A program made the translations under genes and the position numbers. From Terfezia claveryi (lineage: Eukaryota > Ascomycota > Pezizomycetes > Pezizales > Pezizaceae): a stretch of 64,000 nt of DNA. The stretch's first letter is position 1, and each line of letters starts with the position of its first letter. Location: the NCBI GenBank assembly GCA_015179025.1, contig WHUX01000191.1, forward strand, positions 37,359 to 101,358. Reading direction: 5' to 3'. This document shows, in pieces, positions 5,798-63,527 of this stretch. The notes under the pieces were generated by a model. That model worked only from the letters and a program-made list of their open reading frames with translations, ran no database searches and was not told where the DNA came from.

Positions 5798-8203
5798 GGA
5801 TCACAACGGCCATTTTCAGGTTTTGTGTACATACCATACCTCGTTGTAAGAATTTTCCGTAGTCTATCCCAGTCCTTATCATTTTCTTATAACCACCACA
5901 TGTACTTTACTTGTGCAGGGCACTCAAAGCAGTCTTACTAGATATGGTCGCCACCCATGGGCAGTTTGTTTGCCTATGGTTCGTCATAGGTAGATCAGTA
6001 GTAACTACCAGGATGCCTTCGCTCTTAGCAACCGATTACCGCCATGGAATGGGTATGCATGAGCCACGTATGTAGAGGTATTCGCGATCGGCGAGCTCTG
6101 AAGAGTTCAGAGATTCTAACGCATGATCGGCCAGAGCTGATTGATGATCTCGGTGACGTACACAAATATGCCATGATTTCCACAGCACTCACTGTTAAAA
6201 GCCCTAACTCACATTCATCGCCCACTCCAGCCCCGCCGAATTCTTTGGTTATTCTTCATGTGGAGTTGGTAAGCTATGAATAACTAGTCTAGGAACGGTT
6301 CTCTACAAGGGACTAAGTACTAGTTATGAATTATGCAAATGAGCTTGACCGCATAGTGCCCCCAGTAGGTGTTCACATGCATAAGTTATTATTTATCTGA
6401 AAAAACTTATCGTTATTGACGAGAACGCTAGTGCTTAACTACTGCAAGCCCCGTGTCTCCAATGTGCATGCGTCAATTCCCCTGCGGACCGATCGCCATA
6501 CCCATGTAGCTAATTCTAAGCATATCCGTTATGTACTACGTGTCAAATGAAAACTGCAGTAGCTCTGCAGAGCCTCACTGTTTTTTACCATCGTTTGGTC
6601 CCTTTTTGCGGGAATTTCATGGCCAACGTAACCAAGGTCATAGGAAATTCAGAAAATACGACCAAGCAACAGATCTATCAAATTTGTTTAACATCAAAGT
6701 GACCTAAATCGTCATTTTGCAAGGTAATCACTTTACACTTACTTCATAGTGATTTGGGAAGTATACATATAGACATAACGTCAACTCCTTATCACAAAAA
6801 TTCTAATTGGGTCTATTAGCGATCAAACCGAAGCTAATGTAATAGCTCATTAGCGCTAGCACTTAATTCGGTTGCCAACGAAGTTTACAAGGTATAGTCT
6901 GGTTGGCACAAACACCCTCCACAAGGTATATTCTACTGCAAAGTGCCCTCTGCGAGGGGTAGTAAAAGTGATAGAGTACACGATAAGTAAGGGCGCAGTT
7001 TCAACCAAGCACAGCCCCTCACATGCTAGTTGGAAATCGGACTGCCAGTCTGTATGAACACTACAATCGGCACAACATTGACGGGAAGAATAATAGTCTG
7101 CCAGCATGTGGTGCAACTTCGACCTTGAACGACAGGGAAGAGAGAGTTGTCGATAACATGTACCTACCTACATACATACGTACTGTGCTATCAAAACAGA
7201 TATGCAGGCAAAGATATGTAATATATGCATATGTTGTAGTTCCATGCAGGGAGCTCTGCACATGCGCATCATAAAAGCATATGTGTAGGACTCCAATTTT
7301 AGGTTGCAGAGCAGGCAACAATAGCCGCCAAAAGGCGCAAATCCCAACATAAATCCTTAGCTTAAACGGGATCAACCGTATATAGCCGAAGGGATCTATA
7401 ATCTAGAACTATTCAAAAAAATTCAACGACAAATCGGTATCGCGGCCGTCACCAACATTGTGTTTCACTTGGTAAGCTGACATGTACTAGTACATGCGCA
7501 TGATTTCATGTTGGCATGAGACTACTATGATCATGACGGACGACCACACCTACAGTACAGTGCATGACTAACTAGGTATATTTACAGGCCAGATTCCCTT
7601 GGTCAGACAAAACTCAGCTCCCGTCGTACCATTACCAGATATAGCTCAGGCGCGTTTGACGCTGTGAAGTGCTTACCAATCATGGTGCATCAATGCTGGA
7701 CCATCAAACTTCACCTTGCCGATCCATTTTTCTGCAGTTGAATCAGCCTTGACACGTGCAGAGCCACTCGACATCTTTCTTTTTTAACTGCTTCTTCGAA
7801 CCCACGAATCTCAACGCGACTATAACTTGACACACGTTCACCATGCTTATCAGACTTTGAACTCCAGGAACAGAGCGGCAATATCTCAGGTATATTCCCC
7901 AATGTTACTTCAAACATTCCTGTACTAATAACTGCTGTACCATACGTCGCTATTTGCTTTTCAAAAGCAGATTACTCGCATGCAGCGCAGACAATGAAGC
8001 CGCGGGTGCCTAGGAGGCCTTGACTCTTGCATTACCTATTATAACTTCTAATCGGGTTCTCTAGCTGCCGTGGCATGCCACTTACCACTAGAAATAACCA
8101 CTGTTTCTTATATGGAGTTCTAGACCTCCTAGCATACATCTTTCCCCTAATGCGCTCGGAGCTGCTCATGGAGCAGAGGTTCATTCTGCATGTGCCTATA
8201 TGT
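5798..8203. other. Intergenic DNA, no gene recognised
   Basis: Only short overlapping open frames (104 codons at most) without motifs. One 24-bp insertion unit at 6897-6920 is listed separately. Confidence 0.6.
6887..6930 (-). mobile_element. 24-bp micro-insertion with 10-bp direct repeats
   Basis: ACAAGGTATA occurs at 6887-6896 and again at 6921-6930. Between them lie 24 bp (6897-6920) whose reverse complement ends in the shared ..CCAGAC(TA) terminus of the family described in the findings. Confidence 0.7.
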
Positions 8204-8669
8204 TCATGAATAAGTTTTTTTTTTTTTGTTTTTTTTTGAAGTCTGTACGTCTGTGAAGCCTAAGGCTATGAGACGGCCTCGTTCCCTCATCCCAAAGGAC
8301 TCGGTACACCCACGAGACGACGGGCTGCATAAACGCCCTGCCTCCCGAACCAAGGAAAACACCCAAAAGACCCCCCCCTCCGCCACGCTCGCTGTCCGGC
8401 CTCTCCACAAGAATTAAAACTGAACCCCCCCCCCCCCAAACGCCTCCCCCGCCATACCGCCCCGTGCCGCCCCCCCCTTCAATGCTCATCTCAGGTCGAG
8501 ATTGGAGAAGAAGGTTTCTACAAGGTCGACGGCGGTTTCCCTCCCCCCGTCCCTTACCTTCTTGAGCCATTTCCCCCGCTCATCCATCTCTTCCCAGTTA
8601 CCCCACCTCCTGCCGATCTCCTCCCCCCGCGGGCAGACCAGGGCGACATGCCTGCCTGTCATGAATAAG
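8204..8669 (-). mobile_element. 5'-truncated Tad1-type LINE 3' end with 11-bp target duplication
   Basis: TCATGAATAAG flanks the insertion at 8204-8214 and 8659-8669. The 444-bp insert (8215-8658) starts on the plus strand with a T tract, the reverse complement of a poly(A) tail. It then matches, in reverse complement, the last codons and 3' UTR of the LINE ending at 41611: the zinc-knuckle region, a block equivalent to TCTCATAGCCTTAGGCT, and the final CAGACTTC. A homopolymer of about 15 C lies near 8418-8432. This is a textbook target-primed, 5'-truncated LINE copy. Confidence 0.88.
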
Positions 8670-9246
8670 TATACATATGCTCTAGATACAGGAACATGGC
8701 TAGTTCAACTCAGCTCCCAGGATTTCCAAATGTCTGAGTGATGGCATGTTTCACGTACATGCTGCTATCTATTATCTATTCCTGCAGCCAAGGTGCATGC
8801 GGGGTTATGTGACTCAGAAATGGGAAAAGTAAGAACAAAATTCACATCATAAGTGCCCCGCTGTATCTATCAGTCTAGATCCTTCCAGTTTGTACATGGA
8901 AAAACCGGTTTGTTTGAAAGTTGACAATGCTTTATAACAAGTCGCTACAATTGATGGGTCATGTGAAATTCTATTATCGAACAAACATTAGTGGCGGACA
9001 GCTTAGTTGCAGGTCTACACAAGTGAACCATGTTCGGATCTACTTGAGTATGCTATGAGGTTAATCGAATCGATCAAAGAGTGGCTGACATGCAGCGAGC
9101 ACCCATCTAGAATGACCAATTGAATGGCGTAGACCACATACTACAATGCAAGCTTAATAGGGAGTGTGTGATGTTTTGTGTTTATCAGAGATTCCTAGTA
9201 TCATTCAAGGTGGGGTGACTAGAACTAGCCCTGAAGAATCGAGTCT

Positions 9247-9353
9247 TTCTTTTTTTTATTTTTTATTTTTTTTATAAATACTTGTTACTCCTATGCGGCC
9301 CCATCAGGGAGCCATGAGGTATGAGACTCATTGAGGACACGCCCTCAAAATTA
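9247..9353 (-). mobile_element. LINE 3'-tail copy
   Basis: A T-rich tract is followed by AAATACTTGTTACTCCTATG and the second stem of the tail module (GGCCCCATCAGGGAGCC), then sequence that drifts from the family. The far end is uncertain and I found no clear target duplication. Confidence 0.6.
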
Positions 9354-9385
9354 TAGATTCGGCAGTCTGGTTGCACTAGATTCGG
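9354..9385 (-). mobile_element. 14-bp micro-insertion with 9-bp direct repeats
   Basis: TAGATTCGG occurs at 9354-9362 and 9377-9385 around the 14-bp insert CAGTCTGGTTGCAC. It belongs to the same short-insertion family as 6897-6920. Confidence 0.65.
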
Positions 9386-11649: not shown

Positions 11650-12160
11650 TCAGATTCTACGGTCCTCATATTTATTACGGTACGTCGGGCCCTGGGTGTA
11701 TCGCACGGGCTGCTGAATGATACTTGGTCCCGTTAGTGGTTCTGCTGGACCATTTTCCGTCATACGATATCCTTGTAGATGTTGAATAGGATGTTTAGTA
11801 GATCCGTCCGCATATCTCTTTGCCTGTCCAGGTCGGCATAAGCGACATTGCCAAAATCGCTTATTATTAATGGTGACTGCTTCACCATACTGCCCAAATC
11901 CAACTTCGTCGTGGTGTATTTCGCATGTGCCATAGGGAGGAGGGTGCTGCTCCTGAACTATCATCACCACCACTTATATCGATTGCGCTCGGAGACTGTT
12001 GACTTGATGGTATTGCGGAAGGCTCCGGATCAAAATTCGTAAATTGACTAGATGATAATTGCGATAGGTCACTTATAGTCTCCTGATCATCATTGAAAAT
12101 CCCCGACATATCCATAGATGAAGTGTCAAAATTATCCATATCTTGCATATGGGTCAGCAT
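11650..12160 (-). pseudogene. N-terminal fragment of a hAT-like transposase, frameshifted
   Basis: Reading on the minus strand, an acidic, Ser/Gln-rich stretch starting MQDMDNFDTSSMDMSGIF (start near 12147) runs into a BED-like zinc finger: W-Q-C-x-x-C followed about 16 residues later by H and then H-L. This order is typical of the N terminus of fungal hAT transposases. The two parts are in different frames, so at least one indel lies near 11950. No catalytic core follows. Because the family is judged from motif spacing alone, another BED-type transposon protein is possible. Confidence 0.5.
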
Positions 12161-17023: not shown

Positions 17024-17420
17024 CAGTCAACTCTTGCTATACCGGACCTCGCTATAACGGATCCCTTGTTATACCGGACGGACCAGACGCTTCCGGATAT
17101 TTACCAGCAAATTGCCTCTCGCTATACCGGACCGGACAGAGTGCTTGAGGAGTGCAGGGGTCTTCTTATCCCTGTCGCCATACATTTCTCCCTCGCTATA
17201 CCGGACTAGGCAGGGAGGGGCTAGTGCAAGCCAGACTAGCATGTCTAGTTGCTGAATAATCGACTCTTAGGCCTATGTGACTCGAAATACCCTTATTGCG
17301 AGGGCAAAATGGGAGTTCTCAGAACCCACGTGACTGGTTAGCCCCTGTCTATCCGGAACCCTTGCTATACCGGACAAAAAGCCCTGGATTTCTGCCATCC
17401 GTTAAAGCAAGAGTTGACTG
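17024..17420. mobile_element. MITE of pogo/Tc1 type, 397 bp, TA target
   Basis: The left end CAGTCAACTCTTGCTATACC and the right end, which reads CAGTCAACTCTTGCTTTAAC in complement, are inverted, with TA at 17022-17023 and 17421-17422. Inside, CTATACCGGAC-like motifs recur at least five times as subterminal repeats, which could be transposase-binding sites. A copy of the CCAGACTA micro-unit is present at about 17214-17238. Confidence 0.85.
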
Positions 17421-21033: not shown

Positions 21034-21082
21034 AGGAAGTCAGCCCGTTAAGGGGGGGTTGTGCCAGCCAGACTAGGAAGTC
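21034..21082 (+). mobile_element. 33-bp micro-insertion with 8-bp direct repeats
   Basis: AGGAAGTC lies at 21034-21041 and 21075-21082. The insert ends GCCAGCCAGACT and resembles the core GGGGCTAGTGCAAGCCAGAC with substitutions. Confidence 0.65.
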
Positions 21083-21514: not shown

Positions 21515-21541
21515 ACAAAGGTAACCAGACTAAGACAAAGG
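21515..21541 (+). mobile_element. 13-bp micro-insertion with 7-bp direct repeats
   Basis: ACAAAGG lies at 21515-21521 and 21535-21541 around TAACCAGACTAAG. This is one of the shortest members, consisting of little more than the shared end. Confidence 0.45.
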
Positions 21542-21874: not shown

Positions 21875-21904
21875 ATCCTTTTTTAGTCTGGTTGATCCTT
21901 TTTA
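21875..21904 (-). mobile_element. 9-bp micro-insertion with 10-11 bp direct repeats
   Basis: ATCCTTTTTTA (21875-21885) and ATCCTTTTTA (21895-21904) flank GTCTGGTTG, the complement of the shared end. The repeats differ by one T. Confidence 0.45.
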
Positions 21905-24814
21905 GAATCCTTGTGACACAAAAAAGAATTTTAGTTGCAGAATCCTCTCGATGAAGTTGTTACGTAATCTCGGCGTCGGCTCGGCGTCGGCTATCGATAT
22001 CCGCCAAACGCATGAATTCAACAGTGAAAGTTGACATGTTATCTTCAGTTGACGCTGGCGCCTGGTGCCGCGTCATTAAGACTGTCATGCTTCCTGTACC
22101 GCATACTTAGATGTACCTAGGTACAGTACTGTACATATATACGTATCCCTGAGGCAGAGTGATTATGGGAGCTTGTGGATATCGCCATCCAGCCAGCCCA
22201 TCGCCGTTCGCCAAACGATTGCAATAAAGGATCCAAGTATCGGTGAAGACAACCTCATCCTAGGAAAGCCACCCTGCTACCTACCTGAAAGGCGTCATGG
22301 GAAGAGGTTAGAATGCCTCTCAGACATCTACCGGTATACGTGTATAAGTAAATAGCACCATGAGGGCAAACCAATTTTATTCAAATCTAGTTATACCCTA
22401 GGAGCGGTCGGGTTCGAGACTAGTTATACTCTTGTTGAATCCATGACCCAGATTTCCGTACGTGCTTGCGTAATACGCGGGGCTGCCAGGGGGTTCTTGG
22501 CATGAGACTACAAGGAAAAAGTTCCTATTTGCGCTTGCAAATCTGTGTACGTATGGGGCTGGGATCTCTTGATATAGAATTTCTTTGTTCAGTTTTTGGA
22601 ATAAGTAACCTATGCCAGGAATCCTTTTGTAAATGGGTCCGTTTTGGGGTAACAGTATTACTAGTAATACAAAGACTTTTGTTAACATATTATGTACCTG
22701 TCACTGTCGCTTGATTTAAGTGGTGAATCACCCCAATTACAACGGTTCAGCATGCAAAATCTCAGGTTGATTCTCACAAGTTGAAGGAGGCATGGAACGG
22801 CCGACATTACTTGAATACATTCTCCTACTATAAGCAGTAAACCATACTTAGCAATTAACATCCCTCCTAATTGCATGAGGGCCGTCATATACCAAAATTT
22901 GTAGACAAGAGATTACTGGCACCATGATTCAATAATGTGACCATGATAGAGTAGTAGTTCGCATGCAGCTGGTAGACAATTCGAAGTGTAACATGTTTAT
23001 GACTGCTTTGCACAATAAATTTATTTGATATTGGCAATAAGAAAAAAAAACAAAAATCTTGATAATCCAAGTATATCTGAAGAAATTGTGTACAGGGTAC
23101 GTTTTGCTAGGACTTGAAGTACTCGTAGCATTTGGCAAACCGCTTATTAGGTACTGATGGCGGGTATGTGTTCGAGGCCTATCTCGAGGTTTACTTGCTT
23201 GATGATCTGAACTATGTATAAGCGATGGATTATAGACGAAATGAATTTAACTTTCCCGGCAGCTTCGCTATTCCTTGATCCGACAGATCCCCGTCTTCAA
23301 TGTGAACAATTATCCCCACAGGATTATCAGCCACAGAAACATCCTAATACACTCAGCTAAGGTACAATATCTGTACATCAACCCATGATACTTCACTTAA
23401 TACCCATGATAATACTTAACCTCTCATTTCAAGAAATCTGCAGCTCAAGTACCAAGGGCTTCCTATCAGTTCTTACTATTGGTTTGATTGTACTGAAGAT
23501 GCCATCTGCCTGGGGCTTCCCGACGATCGCCTCGACAACACTTAACTTGTAGTTTATACTTATGATAGCTCACCCCTAATATCATGCCGTCTCCGGAATT
23601 TGCCTCCTGGTCCCTTTCAAACCTAACTCGACTAGCTCCTAGGACTCGGTTGAGTAAGAACTAGGGACTTCTTTTCTGTAACTCAGTACTCATTTTCAGG
23701 TTGATCTAACCTATGACGAGGAAGAACTAGGGGCTTCCCGAAACTGAAGTCTAATCTTACCCCTGAGATAGTTACTAAAGAAACAGCCACTCCCCGTCAA
23801 TCCTTCCGTTTCCGATAATCTAAAATTTGGCCTCTTCCATTATCGTATCTTTGGTAGTCTCTCAATAAAGGGTATTTACATACACCCACTATCTCTCTAC
23901 GGTCTCATTATTTTATGCTTCTCGACATCTTAGTAAGCTTGTTGCCTTGGTAGTCTTACTAGCTAGGAGGGTGAGGTGGCCTTGCCATGTTTGAATCTTG
24001 GTTGTCCAGCATGTTCTCTAGTAGGTAGTTTCTTACAACCCATTACTCTCCCGATTGCTACGCAGGTTTAGGTTGGGTTGCCCTCTCGTAACTTGTAGTC
24101 TTGTCGACGTTTCAGAGGTCTTGGATATCTTTGTTTGTGTCGTGACCAGCATAAGATTTGGTAGCAACGTTTCTTCAGGCTCATCCTTGCCAACAAGTAC
24201 AAAGGAATCTCCAATATTGAAGATTGCGGAGTTAATGTGACTATACAATAAATTGGGGTAATGGATATGATATATCTAGGATTGCTTAGCTATACAATTC
24301 GAATGATGGTCAGTATTGCATAATTACCCTGAGCGGTAAAAACAAGATGTTCGCTTTTTATAATACTTTCTTGGTACTCACGAATAAACAGGACTTGATG
24401 TATTAGAGCCTCATACGGGGCTCTTTTACACCATCAGCAATTGAAATATATCCTCTTTGATTCCTTGGCTATCCTGTTATTTAACTACCTCTTGCTTAAC
24501 GGAGAATGATAACTAACCATTCTTGTGGTTGGCACTGGCTGCTCTACCGGTAGGGGCAGTCTGGCTACGGTGGAAACCTTTGATGCTAGAAATAGCACAG
24601 AAACTACCTTTGCTTGATCCAAATTGTAGTGTGCTATCCACGTAGTCGAAACTAAATGCAAAGCCAGCGAAAACTCTTTTTTTGTTACTTCGTACTCATT
24701 AAAGCTATCTCTGCGACCCATCCCTCTTAATGAATTCTTGCAAGGAGGATTCACATAACATAAGAAGGAAAGCACCTTGAGACTGAATGGCTCTGCCATA
24801 TCTCTGCGCCAATC

Positions 24815-24907: not shown

Positions 24908-25070
24908 CCGTAACTAGGGTATTTCAATAAATTCGTTGCGTAACCTGCAGGCCCAGTATACATATGGGTCATCTATCTTCTTGATGTGGTGCCCTGTCCG
25001 TTACAGCATATGCGAGACTCGTAACTGATTTTTTTTTTAAAAAGGAGGCTCATAAGTGCCTGCAGCCCTA

Positions 25071-25657
25071 TTTGATCCGAGACTACGGAGGCTCATACCA
25101 AAAGTCTTTTCCCCTTTCCTTTTTAGGAATCTTGCATATGCAAGCCTATGCACTGTATGCAACTTGGCATTAAAATGGGTTCTAATGACAATGCATCATA
25201 TACCAGCTATGTAACGATTCATTTTACCTTTACTTGTTCCTCGCCTCTAGGCTCGCCTCCTACCCAGTAGCTTCTTTGGGTGCAGAACGTCTTAATTGTC
25301 CTATATTGCTGTATGCAGCGTATGCCAAGGCTGCTTCATTGATGCCAAGCCTGAGTAGATGTGCTTGGCATATGCATCACCAATGCAGTAGCCTTGGTAC
25401 ACTGCCAGCCGCATTATGGACGTCATAAGCCATTTAGGTACTGTATATTCAAGGCAGTCTGGCTATATTCAGGGCAGGGCACAGGCAACAGCAGATTAAG
25501 GCAATAGTAAAGGTAAAACTCATCACTAATTGCCATTGCCACCCGTTTTGGAGCTGAATAATGCCAAGTTGCATGCCGTGCATAGTCTTGCATATGCAGG
25601 ATTCCCAAAAAGGAAAGGGGAAAAGACTTTTGGTGTGAGCCGTACCCGAAGATCAAA
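25071..25657. mobile_element. MITE with about 110-bp inverted repeats, 587 bp, TA target
   Basis: The arms at about 25071-25175 and 25555-25657 are inverted copies: CCAAAAGTCTTTTCCCCTTT on the left is the complement of AAAGGGGAAAAGACTTTTGG on the right, and TGCATATGCAAG.CTATGCA is also shared. Differences are mostly transitions. TA lies at 25069-25070 and 25658-25659. A second inner palindrome (CTTGGCATATGC near 25360) suggests strong folding. No coding capacity. Confidence 0.8.
25444..25476 (-). mobile_element. 7-bp micro-insertion candidate with 13-bp direct repeats
   Basis: TATATTCAAGGCA and TATATTCAGGGCA flank GTCTGGC. The unit is so short that membership in the family is tentative. Confidence 0.35.
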
Positions 25658-40473: not shown

Positions 40474-41611
40474 GTAAAAGCAGGCAGGAGGGGGAAAGCG
40501 AGGACGAGGGACTTGAGGAAGGCAGTATTAGGAATTAGGGGGAGGCAGGAAGCGATGGGAGGAGGGGCTGTCCGCATTGGCTGGGTGAAAGCACATGTTG
40601 GCATCCCCGGTAATGAAGGAGCAGATGAACTGGCAAAAGTAGGGGCGGAAGAGCTTCTCCCTTCTCACCCAGTGATCACGGGGGGTTTGAAGCGGCAGTG
40701 GAAGAGGTGGAGGGAGGCAGAAAGGAAGGTAGCCGGAACTGGAGGAGGTAGAGTGGTTAGATGGGGAAGAAAGGTGAGAGTTAACTATGTTCACTGCAGG
40801 ACTGGGAAAGGGAATCTCCAGTCCTGGTGGGCAAAACTGGATGATACCATTGACCCTACTTGCCGAACATGTGGAAGACACGTCGAGACCGGCAAGCACA
40901 TAGCACTGGTCTGTCCAAGTGGAGAAGAAATTGGGCGTAGATGGGGGAACTGGGAGGAGATGGATGATCGGAAGAGGTGGTTGAAGAGGGTGAAGGATGG
41001 GGAGGAGGAATACACAGTAGACCTGGTCGAGACGTTCTTCTCGAACCTGGACCTAGCCTGAGGAAGTGAGAGGGTGGGGATGGTGGTGATACTCTAGGGG
41101 ATGGGCTGCTAGGAGCATGGCAGTGGAGGAAGGGTTTATTTCTGTAGTATTGATCTCTTTGGCTTAGGAGGCAGGGCGTTAAGGAAACTCGTTTGGTGGT
41201 CGTTTGTTGAGTCCAGACCTTGAGTGAGATCCTGGCAGTGTCTTCTCCTTGCTATCCTTTACTAGTAGGGCCTCTCCGGAACCACTGTTGAGGAATTACC
41301 TTACGTACTAGTATTGAATGTAGCAAGGATGCCTCCTGGGGAGGGGCTAGTGCAAGCCAGACTAGCAAGGATGTTGGCACCGACAGAGGGTTGTGTTGAC
41401 GTTGTCGAAGAGGGGGGAGGGCTGTGGGCTAAGCATATTGTGGGCCAAGGTTGCCATGGCAGTCACGAAGAGGGGGTTATTTACATAATTTCTTTATTTC
41501 GTTAACGCAATCCGTTGTTCCGTGGATTTACCAAGCCTTTTAAGGGGAGGGAACGGGGCCGTCTCATAGCCTTAGGCTGCATAAGTACGTATAGACTTCA
41601 AAAAAAAAAAA
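40474..41611 (+). pseudogene. Tad1-type LINE ORF2, part 2 (RNase H end, zinc knuckle, 3' UTR)
   Basis: The frame resumes VKAGRRGKARTRD, includes IGWVKAHVGIPGNEGADELA with the last RNase H acidic residue, and a C-terminal CCHC knuckle (CRTCG, then H and C in GKHIALVCPSGEE). It stops at 41059-41061. The 3' UTR has AGTATTGAATGTAGCAAGGA, shared with the LINE at 46286-46880, and ends TAGACTTC plus 12 A. This 182-codon tail is intact. Confidence 0.85.
41321..41373 (+). mobile_element. 31-bp micro-insertion with 11-bp target duplication and empty-site paralogue
   Basis: TAGCAAGGATG lies at 41321-41331 and 41363-41373. The related LINE 3' UTR at 46626-46636 has TAGCAAGGATG once, followed directly by the same TTGG. 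The 31 extra bases end GGGGCTAGTGCAAGCCAGAC. Gain plus duplication is therefore shown by comparison, not only by the flanking repeat. Confidence 0.85.
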
Positions 41612-42180
41612 TGATGAGCCACCCGGAAACCCGGTGGATTCAGGACAAGGCAAGTTAATCTGCCAGGTCTGGCGCCTATGTACCGCGAAAATGAGATTCA
41701 AGAGCCGAAGGGCGGCGACAAATAAAACAAAACGAGAAAAGGGAAATAGCCATGGGAGACCATAGTCTGGTTGGGAGACCAAAGAAGAAGTGAAGAACTA
41801 ATCTCTGCTGTCATTAACCGGGTACCTAATGCCAGATGACCCCGAGAGGCATGACTGAGGTCGCCCCCATCCAATACCGTGCCGAGATATGATAAACCAG
41901 AAATAAGATAAACCGAAAATAAATGGACAAAATCGAGTTCTCAGGGGCTACCCCTCCCTGCTATCTGTCTCATAGGAAACCGAAGAAAGCTTCTACTGCG
42001 TCCCATTCATCCCCGTCCTCCTCTTGGATCCATATGTGCCGATCGAGGTCGAGGTCCTCCCAGTCTTTTATGCTGCCGAGGGCAGCTCTTTGCTCGTTGA
42101 AGTCTGAGCAGTCGAAGATGATGTGTCGTCCGTCTTGTGTGGGTGTCCGCACTGGCATATGGAGGGCCCCATGGTTCCCA
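41612..42180 (-). mobile_element. 3' end of a Tad1-type LINE, truncated at both ends
   Basis: The minus-strand frame ending at 41970 reads HIIFDC, then DEWDAVEAFFGFL, matching the C terminus of the LINE at 46286 (DEWDAVEAYFAYL). The 3' UTR with AGATTAACTTGCC and stem 1 of the tail follows, but the last 40 or so bases of the tail are missing. It abuts the poly(A) of the LINE ending at 41611, so one of the two landed in or next to the other. Confidence 0.75.
41754..41781 (-). mobile_element. 10-bp micro-insertion with 9-bp direct repeats
   Basis: GGGAGACCA at 41754-41762 and 41773-41781 flanks TAGTCTGGTT, the complement of the shared terminus AACCAGACTA. It lies in LINE 3' UTR sequence. Confidence 0.55.
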
Positions 42181-54200: not shown

Positions 54201-56470
54201 GATGAGTTTAATACACTCATTATAGAAGGTTGTCACACTGAATCTTTTCAATACTATACTTATTCTACTTACAATGCGTACACTTTAGGAGGCTGAAGAT
54301 GGTACAAAAGTAATACCAGGCCATGGTATTTTACAGAAATATATTTCAAGACAGCCTAATTTAGATAAAATATATTTAGATGATCTTCTATATTCTCATA
54401 TATTTTGTGGACAGATCTGGGTTCTGCAAAGACCTTGAGAATGCAAAACCAGAGTCATAAGAATTTCTTCCAGATCCTCTGATAGATAACAAAAACCCCT
54501 TATTTTGTCGGATTACTTTACTACACTACATTCCATTTAGATGCTTGTCTGAACTTACTGGAATTATTGGAGATAACGAAAATCTAGCAAACAGTATGGA
54601 TGATATAGATTGGACTATGTGGTTGTACTTTTTTATGGAAAAACTTCCTGCACAGCTCCGCAGTATGCTAAATATACAATATTCTAGGGCTCAATTAGAT
54701 GATGAACATGACTCAGATTTTGAATTAGACTATACTACTAATAATCTTGAGTCAGAAGATTGAATGGATATAGCAGGTGTCCAGCCTCATCAAGGACATA
54801 TAGATGATAATGAGAATAATAATATTGATACTATACTAAGGCAACTTGGTCATAGACCTCAAGATATTAAGCATAACTGGAGTAAAGACTTGGATGTGTT
54901 TGGTGGCTATATGAATATTACTTACAGCATTAGTTAGATTCATCAAATAAAACAAAGCTATTCTATTGAGTCTAATATTCTAGAGTTACTACCAGAATCA
55001 TTAAACCGAAAGCAGTGAATTGCCTATGATAAGATCATGCTAGTATAGAATCAAAATCCTAATAATAATAATCAACTTCTTATAGTTGTATCAGGAACTA
55101 CAGGCTCAGGTAAATCCTATCTTATTTAAGTCTTTAGATATACTATTTCAAAAACTCTTCCTCAGGAGTACTCAATTGATGAAGTCTTTCCTGTTCTTGC
55201 ATATACTGGCTATATAGCACATAATGTTGGTGGCGCAACAATACACGGGATGCTACAGATGAGTATAGATACTACTGATGAAGATGATATAAGTCCTTTA
55301 CATATCACTACTCTACAAATAAAGTGTCAACATATAAGGCTTATTATTATTAATGAGAAGTCTATGATAGGACAGAGGTTATTGGCACAAATAGAATGCA
55401 GACTTGCTGTAGTATTTCTAGATCGAGTAGGAAGGCTCTTTGGAGGTATTCATATTATCCTTATGGGAGATTTTGCATAGTTACCTCCAGTCATAGATAT
55501 TCCTCTTTATATTCAGCCTAATCCTGCTAGTATTCTCCAAAAAAACCTTGCAACCCACCTGTTGCAAGACAGAAGTTATTTCCTCTATTAGCAATTCTCA
55601 ACTTTTATTAGGCTATAAGTTAGTATACGTCAGGGAGGGGAATCAATAGAACAAGGTCTTTTTCAATCTATATTGTAACATGCTTGAGATGGAGCCTGAA
55701 CATATAATGACTAGTTAACTATTGTACAATATCGGATTTTGAGAAGGCTTCCAGAGGATGAGAAGAATTTATTTATTGGTGCAACAGCACTAATGTGTAC
55801 TAGGAAAGAGGTAAAAAGCTATAATGCAAAGCACTTACTCTCATTAAAAAATCCTGTCTATGGTGCTCTATCATCACATTCAGTACCCACTTTTATTATA
55901 CAGAAAGTAAGGAAACTTGAGTCAGCTATAGCAGGGGATTTACCTCCTATAATCCTATTAATGATTAGAGTAAGGATTATGATTACAAAGAACCTATGGA
56001 TCAAGGCAGGTATTATTAATAGGGCAATAGAAACCTTGCAGGCGCTCTTACCTAGTATAGAAGTTGAGGGGCTTTCTATGTATCTATTAGTTGAAGTTGA
56101 TCACTACCAAGGTCCTCTATTTCTCGATTCTTATCCTCATGTGATACCTATCACTCCATTAACAGCTTGATTTAAGTATAATTCACAACCATGTTCCTGA
56201 ACTCAGCTCCCTCTAGTACAAGCTTGGGCTCTCACTATCCATAAATCTCAGGGTCTAACACTACCAAAGTGAGTTAGATTCTAAGGAGTACCAGGCTAGT
56301 TTGACTTTTGTTACTCTATCTCAAGTTAAATGTTTAAAGGATCTAGCTTTTCTGAGCCTAGTTTCACTCACTCGCCTGACCTCTATAGCAAAATTGAAGA
56401 ATACTAGTGATAGGTTAGAGGAGAAGTGGCGACTGGACACTCTAAATATTAGGAGAAATCTGCAGTTATA
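51245..56470 (+). pseudogene. Helitron Rep-helicase, decayed
   Basis: The order is right for a Helitron: N-terminal Cys-rich segments (CLKCHIPF..CDYC; ECSICEE..CKHC near 52070-52145), a CAA/CAG-rich linker, a Helitron-like N domain (FPRLFPSGTVDYHASRP, about 52880), the HUH motif GHLHRFI (53521-53541), the two-Tyr motif NYITKYASK (Tyr codons 54019-54021 and 54031-54033), then a PIF1 helicase with Walker A SGTTGSGKSY (about 55091), Walker B-like LIIINEKSMIG (Asn for Asp, about 55352), MGDFA-stop-LPPV, and a final WALTIHKSQGLTL. Dozens of stops are TAG/TAA at Gln or TGA at Trp. The terminal TC and CTRR ends were not located. Confidence 0.85.
51540..51975. repeat. CAA/CAG-type trinucleotide tract in the Helitron
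   Basis: About 430 bp of (CAA)n with CAG, GAG and AAT variants encodes a polyglutamine linker interrupted by TAG and TAA, each one C-to-T step from CAG or CAA. Confidence 0.85.
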
Positions 56471-56494
56471 ACTTTAATATGACTATCATCTTTA

Positions 56495-56695
56495 TGTGCC
56501 ATATATTTCCTGTCTCTATATGCCATATATTTCCTGTTTCTATGCACCGTATGATTTCTGTCTCTATGCACTATATATTTCCTGTCTCTATGTGCCATAT
56601 ATTTTCTGTCTCGCACTGTTTGTTTCCTGTCTCTATGTGCTATATGTTTCCTGTCTATATGCCTGTCTCTATGTGCCTGTCTCTACAATTGAATT
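56495..56695. repeat. Minisatellite after the Helitron helicase
   Basis: Around eight units of the type CCATATATTTCCTGTCTCTATG with a 24-25 bp period, shortening at the right to CTGTCTCTATGTG. Confidence 0.8.
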
Positions 56696-56750
56696 GACAA
56701 GTAGAAAAAGTCAAAAGTTTTAGTAGAATGCAGCACTTTAGTGTTTGAAA

Positions 56751-57020
56751 CTGACAGTAGGTATAGTGCAGTGGTAAGTTCTTTACTTTACAGTTTATGT
56801 TTATTTATTGAGGGCCCGAGTTTGATTCCCAGTAGAGGCAAGAAGTTAATTGCCTTAATATCACTGTTGGCAGACTGGGAGTAGGGTTGTTGGGTATCCA
56901 TTCCTTAATGCTCTAGTTCACTATATCTCCACCAAACTATAAGTTTATAATAAGGGCAACCTAAAAAGTAATGTGATGGTGCTTGGAGTATAGTGAACTG
57001 GGGTAACTCGTTTTGCCTTT
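56751..57020 (+). mobile_element. tRNA-derived SINE-like unit
   Basis: TATAGTGCAGTGGTAAG (56762-56778) fits a polymerase III A box and GAGTTTGATTCCC (56818-56830) a B box, about 42 bases apart as in tRNA genes. The intervening bases do not form a good cloverleaf. The body reads on to about 57020, with a self-complementary pair around AGTTCACTATA (56922) and TATAGTGAACT (56989). No clear poly(A) or duplication was found. A plain tRNA pseudogene is an alternative. Confidence 0.5.
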
Positions 57021-57299
57021 TGACATAAGTATCTTTCTTAGTGAATTGAGACTCCTTTTTTTCTATAACCTTTAATATGACTATGATCTTTGCCCGAATA
57101 GTGATCGTTGCTAAATCAGGGTAACCACATCATTGTCAACTTCAGTTACCTTGTAGTAGATACAATAGAACTAGATGAGGTAATAGAAATAGTTTCCAAA
57201 TCACTATCCTATTCATCAAGCTCTTCCCTACTAATACTTTTTTATTTCTCTCTTCCCTATCCGATGAACAAATAGTGATAAATGAAACTTCCTTACATT

Positions 57300-58990
57300 T
57301 TCCGAATTGCTTGCGGAAGGGATGGAGGCTGGGTTATAGAGGTTTGCCGAGCTGATTAGAGGACTTCTGTAGCTGTTTCTTCTTTTTTGCTTCTATTGCC
57401 TCTCATTCAATATATAACTCCTTAAAGGTCTTTCTCTTTATAACCTGACCATGAAACCTTCTTAGCTCCCTCTGATCAACTTTAGCTTCAAGCTTCTGTG
57501 CTTTTTGCTACTGCTGTAGTATTCTCTGCTCGAGCACCCAGTCCTTATCTGCAGCAATACTAAACTTCTCAAGTTGCTGAATCAAGTCTGCCAAATCTGC
57601 ATGATCAAGGTTCGCTTCTTTGGATTTTAGTCGAAGAGTGGCCTGTCTTACTCATTAATGAAGCTTGGCTGTATTACGAGGTATAGGGGGTTCTAATGGT
57701 GGGGCAGGTACATGGGCTCTTGGCAGAGCTTGTCCATGCATTAACTTATTTAAGACATATCTTGAATTAAATAGAATGAGACCTGCTCCTTGCTATGCAC
57801 TGAGGTTATTCTTCTTAGTATATATTGCAGTTCGTACTATAATAAGCATAAGACGAAAGTTGCCTTTAGTGACTGCCATATTCCCAAACTGAACAAGACA
57901 ATCAACCTGTACTTCATAAGCTTTCTATAGTGGTGAAAATAATTTAATATCATGTAGTTGAAGTAGATGAGTAGAGTGTGCTAGTAAATAGTAGGCAATG
58001 ATGTTGACACTAAGGCAGAATTCAACAAACTCAACTGTAATATGAAATCTATGACTATCCACAATTAGTAGTCTCCATTTTCTACCCATTACTATTCCTT
58101 TTGTTACCTTATAAAAATGTTTAATCTATTCTATCTCAAATATATGACTAGTCTAACCTTTTTTCGAGTAAGTAAACTTCCAGCTATCACAATCTACTTC
58201 TAGATTTTTTAAAGATTGATACCAGCCCATATAATGTCCTGCACCTTTATATATAATTAAAGGAGGTAGTACAATGTCTTCTCCAGATATTTCTTTTACC
58301 ACTGTAATCATTTCTCAATTTCCATCTGTTACTAGTTTACTAGTCATATCTTAACTACATCTTAAGCAAATAACCTTAGCTCGATCTGAAATCCCTTACC
58401 TAAATCCCTTCTCATCTATATTGTAGATTATAGCATCAGTGATTTGGTAAAGCCGCTTAAGCCGTAAAAGCTTATTGAAGTGATCTTGGATAATTTCAAG
58501 ATTGCTAGCCTTGATTCTTTTTTTGTCAAACTGGCTGCTGAGCTTTGAAATAACAAAGGAGTAACGATCTAGAAAGTGAGTAATCCAATTTTTCCCTACT
58601 GCAGATTTTTTATTCTACTCGGTACCCTTTAATAAGACAATACCCTTCTTCACATATAAAATTCGAGAAGAGAATTCCTTCTCCTCTAATTTTAAGATCC
58701 ATCATATAATTGCCTTCTTTTCTACTGGTGTATACAACTGTTGTACAACATGCCCCTTTACACAGGATTCTACACCATTTAACTGCCCATATAATTTAGT
58801 ATAAGAAAGTCTAAAAGCTACTGCTGTCTTCCGAATTGATATGTATTTTCTCTGTTTAAATGCCAAAATTGCACGCTAAATGTACAGCTCTTGTTGAGCC
58901 TCTATAACTTGCTTGCATTGCTTTAGCCTTCCCATTGCTCGTTCCCAGCTTGCACTATTCTTACATTAGCTTATATATTCTACTTGGTCT
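57300..58990 (-). pseudogene. Second pogo-type DDE transposase, inactivated
   Basis: The minus strand reads an N-terminal helix-turn-helix region (AILAFKQRKYISIRKTAVAF), a CENP-B-like part (ASNLEIIQDHFNKLLRLKRL), the first catalytic motif YNIDEKGF (about 58415), LLIVDSHRFH (about 58065), STHLLQLHDIKLFSPL (about 57960) and a coiled, Lys/Glu-rich tail. All three acidic residues are still present, but many stops interrupt the frame. Terminal repeats were not found. It is a different lineage from the element at 27472. Confidence 0.7.
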
Positions 58991-59340
58991 GTTTTCTAAA
59001 CCTCATATAAAGAGTAGATAAATACTACATAATTTTTTCCCAGTGCTCAAATTATGTCTTAGATACACTAAAATATATAGGATCCCTCAGAGTTGATGCT
59101 GCAAGGACTGTTGATTCTAATGTTACCACTGGTATTGAAATCTGTCATAAACTAATATTATTGTAGCCTCAAAATTACCCTGCAATACTGTGCTACTGAT
59201 CGGCATATGGCTGATTGGCATTCCTGTAATGATCGGTATCCCCGTGAAGTATGGTAGTATAATGGGGCTCAGGGAAATATAGCAACCAAGAGATAGGCCT
59301 AGGCCTAGGCAGAGGAAGGGGTAAACTGGAGGCTATGATG

Positions 59341-59712
59341 GTGTCACTGAATGTGAGCAGCTTAATACACACGTAAGCTGACTTATATGTTTGATAGATA
59401 TTCTGCAAGGGGGCAGCAAAACTGCAAAGACTATAAAGCAGGGCAAGAGGGTAAATGAGGAAGGTGCACCAGTGTAAGGAGAGACAAGGAGAAGCAAGGT
59501 CTGTATTCTAGATACAAGACATTGAATAGAGATCCAACTAGAGACCGAAGACAAGAAGATATATATACATGGTGGCTCGAAGAGCCAAGGCCAACAATGG
59601 GATAAGCCTTCTGAGATAGGGAACCTCGATAGTATGCCAGTTCTAGTATGACTCTCAAATGGGGACCAAGGCAATGCTAAGCAACAATAACAATAATAAT
59701 AACAAGACAACA
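59341..59712 (-). mobile_element. Diverged LTR related to the solo LTR at 923-1435
   Basis: In complement it shares with that LTR the TATA region (ATGTATATATA), TTGGATCTC.AT.CAA.GTCT and CCTTGCTTCTCC in the same order and spacing. Differences are largely transitions. Ends and target duplication are uncertain. Confidence 0.6.
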
Positions 59713-59764
59713 GGTCGGGAGCCCGCGAGAGTTATACTAGAACTAGCATGACTCTCAGAGATTC

Positions 59765-59816
59765 AAGGCGATAGTCTGGTTGGCACAAGCCCTCTACAAC
59801 CAGACTACTAAGGTGA
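59765..59816 (-). mobile_element. 38-bp micro-insertion with inverted ends
   Basis: AAGGCGA (59765-59771) and AAGGTGA (59810-59816) flank an insert that begins TAGTCTGGTTGGCACAAGCC and contains CAACCAGACTA near its other end, so here both ends carry the shared terminus. Confidence 0.5.
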
Positions 59817-59827
59817 GACTAGATAAC

Positions 59828-59923
59828 CATTTTTTTTATTATTTTTTTTTAATACTTGTAACTCCTATGTAGTCTCGTCGGGGAGTTATAAGGAGCCACT
59901 CGGAAGCCCGAGTGGATTCAAGG
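59828..59923 (-). mobile_element. LINE 3' tail, separated from its body by a hAT
   Basis: T-rich tract, AATACTTGTAACTCCTATG, and stem 1 as CCACTCGG/CCGAGTGG. It continues at 62515 after the hAT, where AAGTTAATCTGCC, 3' UTR and ORF2 follow. Confidence 0.8.
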
Positions 59924-62506
59924 TATGTCTGGGCACGAGACGTCTTAAGACAAGATAGCACCTGGTCTTGAGACATCTTATTATTTACTAGGCTAGTCTC
60001 GAGACAGTCTCATAAGTCTCGAGACTTTTGCCAATCAAGATCTCCAGATGATAATATTTGAACTCATAAGCTAGCTACCTAATCATCATCAACATCATTG
60101 CCTTCAATGTCTATATTACCTTCTGTTCCCTCTTCTACCAACCCTCAATCTAAAATCATATTTAGCGGTGTAAACTTATCAAACCCTAACCAATACTTAC
60201 AACACATAATTGCATTAGCCATTCCCTCTATCATAGCACTTCTCTGCTTAGTTAATACATTCCCTGCAATAGAAAAACAATACTCAGAAGGTACACTGAT
60301 AGCAGGAATAGCAAAATAATCTCAAGCCATATGACTAAGGTTAGGAAACTGAGACTCATAAGTATGCCACTATTCAATCAGATCAATCTGCAGAAGTTCA
60401 ACCTTTTTCTCTAGAAATATATCTACCTTCGATATCTCTAGAATTGTACTAGCTTGTAAAGAACCAAATACAGCTGTCATAAAGTCGTCTTCGAGATATT
60501 GAGAGCTTGCTGGAGGAGGTGGAGTAGAAAGGTGTGAGGATATAGTAGCCGGAGTATACTGGTTCTGATAAATTCTTTGGATAGCTTCTTTCGCCTCTAA
60601 AATCCACTCAGTTTGCTATCTAAGGTTCTGGAATGTTTGAACTTTACATTGTAGATCTAACATAGTTGCAATTGTTTATACAGAATAAGTTTTACTATAA
60701 TATTCATTAAGCTTCTGCCAGCTAGCGGTACAAGCCTCAAAGAAAATTGATCTTGAAGTAGACTCATGCTCTACTATAGTCTCTAAACGAGTTGATAATA
60801 TTGAGAAGTATGGAAGCTGTGCAAATAAGGTAGGATAGCTACTTCCACTCAAATGTTCAGTAGCTATAATGAAGATATCAAGAATATCTTTGAGTTTTTA
60901 GAGAAGTGACTATTCTTCAGCATGAATTTGTAAATTTTGGAGACGTTCTTCCAATCTAAAGTAGTCAGTATAATTTTTAAAAATCTTGAAGTAAAAATTA
61001 TACATACTTGCATACAGCATCAATTGCAGGACGTAATTCCAATATGCGTTCAAGTATAGTATATATAGAATTCCAGCGTACAGGCATATCAAGGATTAGA
61101 CGTTTGGATGGTATGTATACTGCTTGAGCCTAAGCTTTTAGAGATTCCCAGAGACAATATGATAATCAGATTTTTGCAATGATTTTGTGTACTTTATACG
61201 ATGCATATGCTAGTTAAGTTCCTTCAACCTTAAAGTTTTCTTCATTATCTTCATCATCAGCTAAGTTAGCTTCGTTTTGTATGGGAGTTGTATGGAGGTT
61301 TTTCAATAAGTCTGCACTGCTAGGTTAATAATATGACCTATGCATCCGAATACATGTACATTATTTTGTTTAAATCCAGACAAATTTCCTTCTCTTTCAA
61401 GTCTTCAAAACATAGCAGTATTAACTGAAGTAGAGTCAGCAGTAATAGCATGAATAGCTCTTGCAACATGAAATTTTTGTAAACATGCAACCAGAACCTG
61501 GCCTAAAGCTTGTGTAAAATGACTTCCCTCTAAATATTCAAATTCCCAATAACAATGATTGAAACTACCAAGTTACAGATTCAATAAACATGCAGTAATT
61601 CCAAAAATGGTATCTAATAGATGAACTCCATGCATCTAGAATAATACTAACTCTACCTCCATAAATAACTGTAAACTCACATAGTATATTCTGAATTGAG
61701 GTAACAACTTAGAATATAAACTATAATATCACGAGATGCAGTACGTCTAGATATCATAATAGCAGAGGGATTACAATATTGAAGTAACTCCCGAAAACTA
61801 GAATTCTCAACAACAGATAAAGAAGCATTAGTATTAATTAAAAAAGAAGATATATGCTCGCGTAACACCTTATTATCAAATCGGTCCGCTTGTTTTCTTG
61901 CACTTGCTGTTTTTCCTTGCGCCATTATACTGAATGGAGTCTGCTCTTTTGTTGTTGTACCTGAAGATCTTGCTAGCTGTTCCAATCATTGTATTTCTTC
62001 TTCTTGACTGTTGGAATCAAAGGATGTCGCTGTCGGAGATGTCGCAGCTGTAAACTGGAAAGTAGTAGATTTGGCTCCCACAGTCCACCCTCCTCATGTG
62101 CAGTGTGTACAAAAGATAATATGCTTACTTTCATCATGTTCCAATGTCTTCCGTATTAGTATCTTTCGGGTATAAACATAACTGCTGAATTTCCGTGAGG
62201 CCGCAGTTCCGCTAATAGTACGTGAGTCTTGTAAGGTAGCATAGCGCCCTGCTAAAGCCGCGATATATTCATCTGGTGTACGAGCAGCCGATATGGAAAT
62301 TTGGCTCATGGTGGACATTAGTGAAGGAATGTGCAGATAGAGCGGAGAAGGAGAACTTTAAGTTGCCTGCCTCTAGTAGCGAGAATAACACTAAAATAGT
62401 CCAACCAAACTATAAAATAGTGCTTGAACTTGGATTTCCGCAACCGATAAATTTCTCGAGACTTTTACGCGCAGTCTCGAGACGTCTCGTCTCGTGCCCA
62501 GGCCTA
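59924..62506 (-). mobile_element. hAT transposon, 2583 bp, with 8-bp target duplication
   Basis: Ends TATGTCTGGGCACGAGACG and its partner (GTCTCGTGCCCAGGCCTA) are flanked by ATTCAAGG at 59916-59923 and 62507-62514. It interrupts the LINE whose tail is at 59828. It is the full-length relative of the two deletion derivatives at 12956 and 49533. Confidence 0.95.
60079..62318 (-). pseudogene. hAT transposase of the 59924 element, inactivated
   Basis: Start MSTMSQISISAARTPDEYIA at 62318, then a BED-like start (HIIFCTHC), KQADRFDNKVLREHISSFLI and FRELLQYCNPSAIM in 61677-61985, and a C terminus EEGTEGNIDIEGNDVDDD with stop at 60079-60081. The middle carries many stops. Confidence 0.8.
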
Positions 62507-62600
62507 ATTCAAGGGAAGGGCAAGTTAATCTGCCAAACCCACGCAACTAAATACAAATATAAAGACGCTAGTGAAGGACTGCGCTGGACAAAGGGGACTC

Positions 62601-62648
62601 GTAAATAAGTAAGAAGGGGCTAGTGCAAGCCAGACTAGTAAATAAGTA
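62601..62648 (+). mobile_element. 26-bp micro-insertion with exact 11-bp direct repeats
   Basis: GTAAATAAGTA lies at 62601-62611 and 62638-62648. The insert reads AGAAGGGGCTAGTGCAAGCC plus AGACTA. It lies in LINE 3' UTR. Confidence 0.8.
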
Positions 62649-62843
62649 CAGAAGGAACTGAGAACTCTCGATATGCTGACTCTGAAAACGGAAACTAAAT
62701 GAACTTTCCTAACAAAAACTTGAAAAAGGCCTCTGTGGCCTCATAAGACTCCCCTCCCTCCTTTCTTCACTCCGGTCTGTCCAGCTCCTTCCAGCTGCGT
62801 TTCTCTCCTAGTAGGGCTCTCCGAAAGCGGTTGAAGCGGGGGC

Positions 62844-62918
62844 AGTCGAAGATGTTTTTTTTTTTTTTTTAAAATACTTATTACTCCTATGCAGCTCCGT
62901 TGGGGGGAGTCGAAGACG
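62844..62918 (-). mobile_element. 53-bp LINE-tail insertion with 11-bp target duplication
   Basis: AGTCGAAGATG (62844-62854) and AGTCGAAGACG (62908-62918) flank a T tract plus only 37 bp of the tail module, ending inside stem 2. It interrupts the zinc-knuckle codons of the LINE. Confidence 0.85.
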
Positions 62919-63439
62919 ATGTGTGAACCAGACTCCGAAGGATGGCCATACGCACATGCCTCTGACTCTGCTTTGCCGATATGATGTAGCCAGCTCTTCT
63001 GAGGGCCCTTGTTCGTTCGCATCCATGTGTAGGCTGATAGGGTATGGCGGTCCCATTCCACTCTTCTAGCTCCATATTCTGCTTTCGTTCTCGCCTCTTT
63101 TCGTATGGCTTTGGAGGATGCACGGAGCCCCCCTTCTGTTGCTGTATGCTCTTGGCCTGTGAACTCTCCTAAATGAGACTGGAAGTTCGCAAGCCAGTCT
63201 GCCTTTTCATTCCCTGGAATGCCCAAATGACCCCTGACCCATAATAGCTGAAGGTCTCTATGTGGGTTGGTGGTCAAGCAAGCCTTGATCTCTTTCTCGA
63301 TGCCAGACCTGGGAGGAGAGCCTGAGCTCATGTTGCGGACTGCCTGGATTGCTGCTTGGGAGTCTGATAGAATTGCCAGCATATCTGAGTCCTCCTTGGC
63401 ACTTGCGCAGAGCCAGTTGCATTACAAACAGTTCGCCAT

Positions 63440-63488
63440 CCACTAGGTTAGTCTGGCTTGCACTAGCCCCTCCCTAGCCACAAGGTAA
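63440..63488 (-). mobile_element. 27-bp micro-insertion at the truncated end of a LINE
   Basis: CCACTAGGTTA (63440-63450) and CCACAAGGTAA (63478-63488) match at 9 of 11. The insert is the complement of GGAGGGGCTAGTGCAAGCCA plus GAC. Confidence 0.55.
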
Positions 63489-63527
63489 CCATGGAAGAGG
63501 GGCTAGTGCAAGCCAGACTAGTAACCA
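63485..63527 (+). mobile_element. 29-bp micro-insertion with 7-bp direct repeats
   Basis: GTAACCA lies at 63485-63491 and 63521-63527. The insert ends AGGGGCTAGTGCAAGCCAGA plus CTA. With the neighbouring inverted unit it forms a hairpin of about 25-bp arms. Confidence 0.7.

What the first reader, a model, noticed from the sequence alone, without database searches (positions are those of the whole stretch)
6887..63527. A family of 7-38 bp insertions with one fixed end and 7-13 bp target duplications
At least eleven sites show a short insert flanked by a direct repeat, and all inserts share one terminus, CCAGACTA or its complement TAGTCTGG. Insert positions: 6897-6920, 9363-9376, 21042-21074, 21522-21534, 21886-21894, 25457-25463, 41332-41362, 41763-41772, 59772-59809, 62612-62637, 63451-63477, 63492-63520. 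The other end is variable, and the longer members share GGGGCTAGTGCAAGCCAGAC. The duplications are different at each site and vary in length like the 11-14 bp ones made by LINE tails in the same window. One fixed end, variable opposite end and variable duplications fit target-primed reverse transcription of a short RNA without a poly(A) tail. The rival idea is solo ends or footprints of a Mutator-like DNA element, which makes 8-11 bp duplications. I know of no described element of this size.
Basis: partly seen in the sequence, partly recalled or inferred. Interest (0 to 1): 0.9.

Follow-up and report, generated by a model that had tools for sequence, protein, structure and literature searches.

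The report
Tiny one-armed hairpin DNA insertions
This fungus's genome carries thousands of copies of one tiny DNA end sequence, and many sampled copies, some only 7 bases long, sit between 9-base duplications of the site, so they were likely put in by a transposon enzyme that would have joined just one arm of a short hairpin.

Summary
Over 69 sampled copies the duplication is 9 bp, not variable: base matching is 0.84 at position 9 and 0.29 at position 10. The end 11-mer CAACCAGACTA occurs 5,960 times in the 72.6-Mb genome (reversed control 57). The likely source is a hairpin: some two-ended copies are perfect 30, 40 and 50-bp palindromes (TAGTCTGG...CCAGACTA). Most sampled sites with a duplication keep one arm, cut near the hairpin tip (22-34 bp) or nearer the end (7-18 bp). 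A 12-copy repeat family gives empty sites for inserts of 7, 11 and 22 bp.

A 9-bp duplication, a weakly symmetric target and two MULEs with 9-bp duplications in the same genome favour a Mutator-like DNA transposase acting one-endedly on an ultrashort hairpin, over target-primed reverse transcription. The transposase was not found, and loss of one arm is inferred. The listed rows of ten open-access searches (one only on the organism's kin) held no such nuclear insertion. Verdict: new variant of a known kind, high interest.

The parts
6895..6919 (-). one-armed insert, 25 bp; duplications 6886-6894 and 6920-6928
   Evidence: TACAAGGTA | insert | CACAAGGTA, 1 mismatch
9363..9376 (-). one-armed insert, 14 bp, end CCAGACTG
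   Evidence: TAGATTCGG on both sides, exact
17213..17238 (+). copy of the 22-mer end without detectable duplication
21044..21075 (+). one-armed insert, 32 bp (tip plus 3' arm)
   Evidence: GGAAGTCAG / GGAAGTCTG, 1 mismatch
21522..21532 (+). one-armed insert, 11 bp
   Evidence: ACACAAAGG / AGACAAAGG, 1 mismatch
21884..21894 (-). one-armed insert, 11 bp
   Evidence: ATCCTTTTT on both sides, exact
22399..22422 (+). sister subfamily (GGTTCGAGACTA end), 24 bp
   Evidence: GTTATACCC / GTTATACTC, 1 mismatch
25052..25085 (+). sister subfamily (GATCCGAGACTA end), 34 bp; boundary ambiguous
   Evidence: AGGAGGCTC / CGGAGGCTC, 1 mismatch
25455..25465 (-). one-armed insert, 11 bp, end CCAGACTG
   Evidence: TATTCAAGG / TATTCAGGG, 1 mismatch
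41332..41364 (+). one-armed insert, 33 bp, with hairpin tip CCTCC-TGG-GGAGG
   Evidence: GCAAGGATG on both sides, exact
41763..41772 (-). one-armed insert, 10 bp
   Evidence: GGGAGACCA on both sides, exact
59772..59807 (.). two-ended copy, 36 bp, TAGTCTGG...CCAGACTA
   Evidence: duplication degraded, 3 of 9 mismatches
62401..62412 (+). one-armed insert, 12 bp, end mutated to CCAAACTA; the C90 and C523 copies keep CCAGACTA
   Evidence: TAAAATAGT on both sides, exact
62610..62637 (+). one-armed insert, 28 bp
   Evidence: GTAAATAAG on both sides, exact
63449..63477 (-). one-armed insert, 29 bp
   Evidence: CCACTAGGT / CCACAAGGT, 1 mismatch
63492..63520 (+). one-armed insert, 29 bp
   Evidence: 7-bp repeat GTAACCA only

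Best explanation
The inserts share one fixed end with a short palindromic element (TAGTCTGG...CCAGACTA) and many are flanked by 9-bp target duplications, and they were likely put in by a Mutator-like DNA transposase that usually joined only one arm of that hairpin (one-ended transposition) rather than by reverse transcription. Shown: the fixed end; a duplication whose matching stops after 9 bp; three size classes (end only, tip plus one arm, both arms); arms that agree more often than shuffled arms in two-ended copies; tip sequences that recur at independent sites; and empty sites in repeat copies. Inferred: a transposase dimer with a 9-bp stagger joins the 3' end of a hairpin arm (...AGACTA-3') to one target strand; the other arm is not kept; the hairpin is opened at its tip or trimmed further; and the gap is filled to leave 9 bp on each side. 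Which transposase acts, and whether the donor is double-stranded DNA or a folded single strand, is unknown.
For: Duplication length: 69 copies with a single 6-bp seed match 0.93, 0.81, 0.84 at positions 7-9, then 0.29, 0.25, 0.25 at 10-12; shifted controls find a seed in 5-10 of about 140 places, against 73 of 142. Target: bias is symmetric about the duplication centre, r = 0.56, permutation p = 0.0028, n = 60. Two MULEs, of eight loci fetched, could be given ends; both have exact 9-bp duplications, while 8 and 10 bp were also tried there. Two-ended pattern: 308 places against 6 in the control; of 22 distinct printed ones, 10 have arms identical over 12 or more bases (shuffled mean 6.1, p = 0.017), 8 over 15 (mean 3.1, p = 0.0004), and 3 are perfect palindromes. 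The 50-bp form folds at -28.3 kcal/mol, z = -13. Tips TTAA, TGG and TAC recur at sites with different duplications. Empty sites: 7-bp and 22-bp inserts in 1 of 12 copies each, an 11-bp insert in 5 of 12. Random endpoints at one end are how one-ended transposition of some Tn3-family elements is described (PMC4133298, passage); single-ended events are reported for piggyBac (PMC3952818, passages).
Against: No transposase or longer element with AGACTA ends was found: 0 of 10 tested far-apart pairs of opposite ends share a duplication, and the two MULEs with placed ends end in CGGACTGACTC. No one-armed copies of those MULE ends were seen in the loci held. Joining one end should not by itself cut both target strands 9 bp apart, so an extra step is needed. 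The target symmetry is weak; centres 6 bp left and 5.5 bp right of the middle reach r = 0.53 and 0.52. About half of the CCAGACTA ends (70 of 142) show no 9-bp repeat within one mismatch. A minor class may have 7 bp (9 of 69 runs stop at 7, 3 at 8). In 12 of 22 printed two-ended places the arms agree over only 8-11 bases; some are neighbouring separate inserts, so 308 overstates true hairpins.
Confidence: 0.5

Rival explanations
1. Target-primed reverse transcription of a short hairpin RNA ending in CCAGACUA, with an endonuclease of fixed 9-bp stagger. The polymerase stops at about 10-16 nt or at the hairpin tip, giving one-armed copies, and rarely reads through.
For: One fixed 3' end with variable 5' truncation is the normal product of this route (recalled); truncation points of the longer class lie near the hairpin tip. 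A LINE-type RNase H match lies in the window (just below cut-off).
Against: The duplication is 9 bp, whereas LINE-type duplications usually vary (recalled). Target bias is symmetric, not one-sided, though weak. No poly(A) or simple tail lies next to the fixed end in the listed copies, and there is no Rfam or tRNA match in the window.
Confidence: 0.2
2. Full 30-60-bp palindromes insert normally as ultrashort MITEs, and one arm is later lost by hairpin-driven deletion.
For: Palindromes are unstable (recalled); copies with a partly deleted left arm exist (TAGTCTG|TGGAGGGG...).
Against: The lost-arm boundary coincides with the duplication edge: 52 of 69 runs reach 9 or more, only 3 stop at 8. In the 12-copy family none of the four main-family sites shows a longer form: 29 bp in 12 of 12, 11 bp in 5 of 12, 22 and 7 bp in 1 of 12 each.
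Confidence: 0.15
3. Excision footprints of a longer transposon with CCAGACTA inverted repeats, leaving both duplications and some end sequence.
For: Stowaway and mariner excisions are said to leave a small duplication plus short end sequence (PMC4561436, abstract in listing). A rare cut-and-paste element could leave many footprints.
Against: Hairpin tips recur at independent sites, which a footprint of a long element would not produce; no long parent was found among 10 candidate pairs.
Confidence: 0.1

Closest known systems
MITEs of Mutator-like elements (MULEs)
   Same: no coding capacity, inverted-repeat ends in the two-ended copies, 9-bp target duplication; MULEs are described with 9-11 bp (PMC3310237, passage)
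   Different: at most about 60 bp and mostly one-armed in the sample, down to 7 bp; no MULE with these ends found; MULE repeats are typically 100-500 bp (same passage)
One-ended transposition (Tn21/Tn3 family; piggyBac single-ended events)
   Same: one fixed end, variable other end
   Different: described as an aberrant or alternative reaction of a long element (PMC4133298, PMC3952818, passages); here most sampled sites with a duplication are one-armed, and the likely donor is a short hairpin
Yeast mitochondrial GC clusters (GC42, GC18)
   Same: about 40-nt mobile palindromes flanked by short direct repeats; an 18-nt form equals one end of the 42-nt form (PMC4478555, passages)
   Different: mitochondrial, with AG or ACT repeats; here nuclear-type contigs with 9-bp duplications
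5'-truncated LINE/SINE copies
   Same: fixed 3' end, variable 5' end
   Different: 9-bp duplication, no tail, hairpin source, far shorter

Membership tests
Mutator-like (MULE) elements | 9-11 bp target duplication | tested here: met
   9 bp
Mutator-like (MULE) elements | terminal inverted repeat shared with a MULE-encoding element of the same genome | tested here: inconclusive
   not met for the 2 MULEs with placed ends; PF10551 matches 21 places, 8 were fetched and 6 of these could not be given ends
MITE | short, no open reading frame, constant target duplication | tested here: met
   7-56 bp; 9 bp
MITE | inverted repeats at both ends of each copy | tested here: not met
   60 one-ended against 7 two-ended site entries (two of the 7 are one site read on both strands, and at least one of the 60 is really two-ended); 308 two-ended places (8-mer ends, upper bound) against 5,960 copies of the 11-mer end
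LINE/SINE by target-primed reverse transcription | variable target duplication | tested here: not met
   match rate drops from 0.84 to 0.29 between positions 9 and 10
LINE/SINE by target-primed reverse transcription | fixed 3' end with variable 5' truncation | tested here: met
LINE/SINE by target-primed reverse transcription | RNA intermediate | not testable with these tools
   no RNA data; no Rfam or tRNA match in the window
Excision footprint | a longer parent element with the same ends and duplication length | tested here: inconclusive
   0 of 10 candidate pairs; a sample, not the whole genome
One-ended transposition | one fixed end, variable other end, duplication of constant length | tested here: met
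One-ended transposition | dependence on a named transposase | not testable with these tools
   needs an experiment

The most novel reading that the evidence does not exclude
A new class of nuclear mobile DNA: a 30-60-bp hairpin with only 6-8 recognised end bases (AGACTA), whose ordinary way of inserting is one-armed, so that a 7-bp piece plus a 9-bp duplication is a complete transposition product. Sister subfamilies share only AGACTA with the main one. These would be the smallest nuclear transposition products I know of.
Probability: 0.45. Interest if true: 0.87.

Novelty: new variant of a known kind. Interest (0 to 1): 0.76.

Why it matters
If right, a transposase has made thousands of 16-45-bp insertions (insert plus duplication) that would pass as ordinary small indels in this genome and perhaps in others. 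It would show that a transposase can work from one hairpin arm with very few recognised bases, and would give a natural counterpart to in vitro tagmentation. It also makes an old question testable: how one-ended events resolve in eukaryotes.

Tried and rejected
Chance repeats: rejected by the shuffle and shift controls. Variable duplications: rejected after anchoring at the fixed end. LINE or tRNA tail: no support. Autonomous parent: eight MULE loci and ten far-apart end pairs gave none. The CCAGACTA inside the L079 MULE repeat has no 9-bp duplication that I can see and is probably incidental. hAT transposases are common (150 matches scored of 182 candidates); their usual 8-bp duplication (recalled) does not fit. 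One-armed copies of the known MULE ends: none in the loci held. Abortive events leaving only a 9-bp deletion: two 9-bp deletions appear in the 12-copy alignment, but a second family of 9 sequences has none, so this is left open. Strain comparison: not possible; the only near-identical second copy of part of the window that I compared, C90, is a 99.3% identical contig overlap without a presence/absence difference in these inserts (the mutated copy at 62401-62412 keeps its original end there). Viral contigs: 0 matches to one 17-mer. Papers: ten searches, of which I saw the listed rows only, and passages of five papers. Nine searches bore on such insertions, several returning mostly unrelated papers; one search looked only for genome papers of the organism's kin. 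The library holds open-licence papers only.
Full report
WHERE IT IS. The window is the end of contig C103 of a 72.6-Mb, 794-contig assembly. The nearest protein to one window ORF is from Tirmania nivea, a desert truffle, at 57% identity over 80% of the query (only 2 proteins were found), so the host is likely a relative in the Pezizaceae (family name recalled). A window ORF at 62741-63382 matches RNase H just below the Pfam cut-off, as LINEs carry.

IS IT REAL. CCAGACTA occurs 14 times in the window against 2.33 expected; 0 of 100 shuffles reach 14. In the whole genome the 22-mer GGGGCTAGTGCAAGCCAGACTA has 181 exact copies (reversed control 0), TAGTCTGGTTGGCACAA 1,616 (control 0) and CAACCAGACTA 5,960 (control 57). 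In 351,568 bases of window and fetched loci, 54 of 145 non-redundant CCAGACTA ends have an exact 9-bp repeat across a 5-59-bp insert; for other 8-mers the figures are 0 of 17 (CTAGACTA), 0 of 12 (ACAGACTA), 1 of 15 (TCAGACTA) and 0 of 13 (ATCAGACC). CCAGGCTA scores 5 of 20 there; in the window this motif lies in a tandem repeat. A blind search of the same loci for any 9-11-bp repeat pair around a short segment gave 299 segments; AGACTA is an end 6-mer in 46, and no unrelated 6-mer exceeds 5. Many loci were chosen because they carry the motif, so these fractions are not genome-wide rates.

THE DUPLICATION IS 9 BP. I anchored the repeat at the fixed end with a 6-bp seed and read on without choosing. 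The match rate is 0.93, 0.81, 0.84 at positions 7, 8, 9 and then 0.29, 0.25, 0.25, 0.28, 0.20, 0.29, 0.22 at 10-16 (69 copies with one seed; 73 of 142 had any seed; shifted controls 6/142, 6/140, 5/140, 10/140, 5/142). A small 7-bp class is possible (runs: 5 at 6, 9 at 7, 3 at 8, 34 at 9, 12 at 10, 5 at 11, 1 at 12). With one mismatch allowed, 72 of 142 ends have a 9-bp repeat and 70 do not.

THE SOURCE IS LIKELY A HAIRPIN. The two-ended pattern TAGTCTGG-N10-40-CCAGACTA has 308 places against 6 in the reversed control. Twenty-three places were printed in full, 22 distinct: 3 are perfect palindromes (30, 40 and 50 bp), 10 have arms identical over 12 or more bases (shuffled mean 6.1, p = 0.017), 8 over 15 or more (mean 3.1, p = 0.0004), and 12 agree over only 8-11. 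Some of the rest, and one of the 10 (C1:16783, compare), are neighbouring separate inserts, so 308 is an upper bound. Folded as single DNA strands, the 50- and 40-bp forms give full hairpins (-28.3 and -19.9 kcal/mol, z -13 and -9); two one-armed 29-30-mers do not fold better than shuffles. In two-ended copies with a 9-bp repeat the arms share variants: GGCTT with AAGCC, GTTGCAT with ATGCAAC, GGTTGCATGAC with GTCATGCAACC. Partly deleted left arms also occur, e.g. TAGTCTG|TGGAGGGGC.

SIZE CLASSES. Among one-ended site entries (60, up to 1 mismatch in the repeat) lengths fall at 7-18 (26 entries) and 22-34 (30), with 4 longer ones (36, 37, 52, 55 bp; some composite or nested). One of the 34-bp entries (L022) is really a two-ended copy whose TAG merges with the duplication. 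Thirty loci were fetched with the 22-mer, which over-weights the longer class. The longer class runs from near the hairpin tip to the fixed end. Tips recur at independent sites: TTAA in L005, L006 and L022 (L028 in part); TGG in W41332, L001, L004 and L008; TAC in L012, L014, L015, L016 and L023. That repeats the tips, so the mobile unit is likely the short hairpin and not the end of a long element.

EMPTY SITES. A repeat of about 810 bp with 12 aligned copies carries several insertions. CAACCAGACTA with CCCCTTCAG doubled is in 5 of 12 (with point changes; in two as CAACTAAACTA) and absent in 7 of 12. CAGACTA (7 bp) with GGTCAAACC doubled is in 1 of 12. GAGGGGTAGTGCAACCAGACTA with TAGTATACC doubled is in 1 of 12; its flank also differs by one base from the other copies. 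A 13-bp TAGTCTCGTGCCC with an 8-bp repeat is in 1 of 12. A 29-bp insert is in all 12, with point changes and one missing base in one copy. No site has a longer form in any of the 12.

SISTER FAMILIES. GGGCACGAGACTA has 232 copies (control 0). Single inserts ending GATCGAGACTA (two), GCACGAGACTA and GGTTCGAGACTA also have exact 9-bp repeats; in all 4 of 27 CGAGACTA ends do. They share only AGACTA with the main family.

MECHANISM. A duplication of constant length, a target bias symmetric about its centre (r = 0.56, p = 0.0028, 60 sites; other centres reach 0.53 and 0.52) and the 9-bp duplications of two MULEs in this genome (TTGTTGAGG and TGCTACCTA; 2 of 8 fetched MULE loci could be given ends) point to a DNA transposase of the Mutator kind. 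MULEs are described with 9-11 bp (PMC3310237, passage read). Random endpoints at one end are how one-ended transposition is described (PMC4133298, passage, citing Avila et al. 1988, not held). That such products also carry target duplications in Tn21 is recalled, not read. I therefore infer one-ended transposition of an ultrashort hairpin. What is not shown: the enzyme, the donor form, and how the second target strand is cut when one arm is not kept. The MULEs with placed ends have different termini, and 0 of 10 far-apart opposite end pairs share a duplication.

COMPARISON. The nearest look-alikes are MULE-type MITEs, one-ended transposition products and yeast mitochondrial GC clusters, where an 18-nt form equals one end of a 42-nt palindrome flanked by AG or ACT (PMC4478555, passages). 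None of these, as I read or recall them, joins nuclear location, a 9-bp duplication and one-armed inserts of 7-34 bp. Nine searches of the open-access library bore on this, and their listed rows held no such description (one search looked for the organism's genome papers); subscription papers were not searched.

Noticed in passing
L079 (C773), with L090 and L091: A MULE with a 541-aa ORF and a MULE domain lies between inverted repeats of about 1.6 kb made of tandem sub-repeats; the outer ends were not reached.
   Followed up: partly
L074, L075: MULEs with 9-bp duplications and subterminal palindromes GGACAGGTACTTTCTACCTGTCC repeated several times.
   Followed up: partly
L007 and L086 in the 12-copy alignment: Two independent deletions of exactly 9 bp; possibly trimmed rather than filled 9-nt overhangs. 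A second repeat family showed none.
   Followed up: partly
window 56012-64000: Overlaps contig C90:1-7988 at 99.3% identity: an unmerged contig overlap or a second haplotype; C90 has a 10-bp insertion at window 62457.
   Followed up: yes
L088, L089: Many C-to-T and G-to-A changes against the other repeat copies, as repeat-induced point mutation would give.
   Followed up: no
window 33740-34813: Long proline- and serine-rich reading frame made of short tandem repeats; the other strand is open over most of it too.
   Followed up: no
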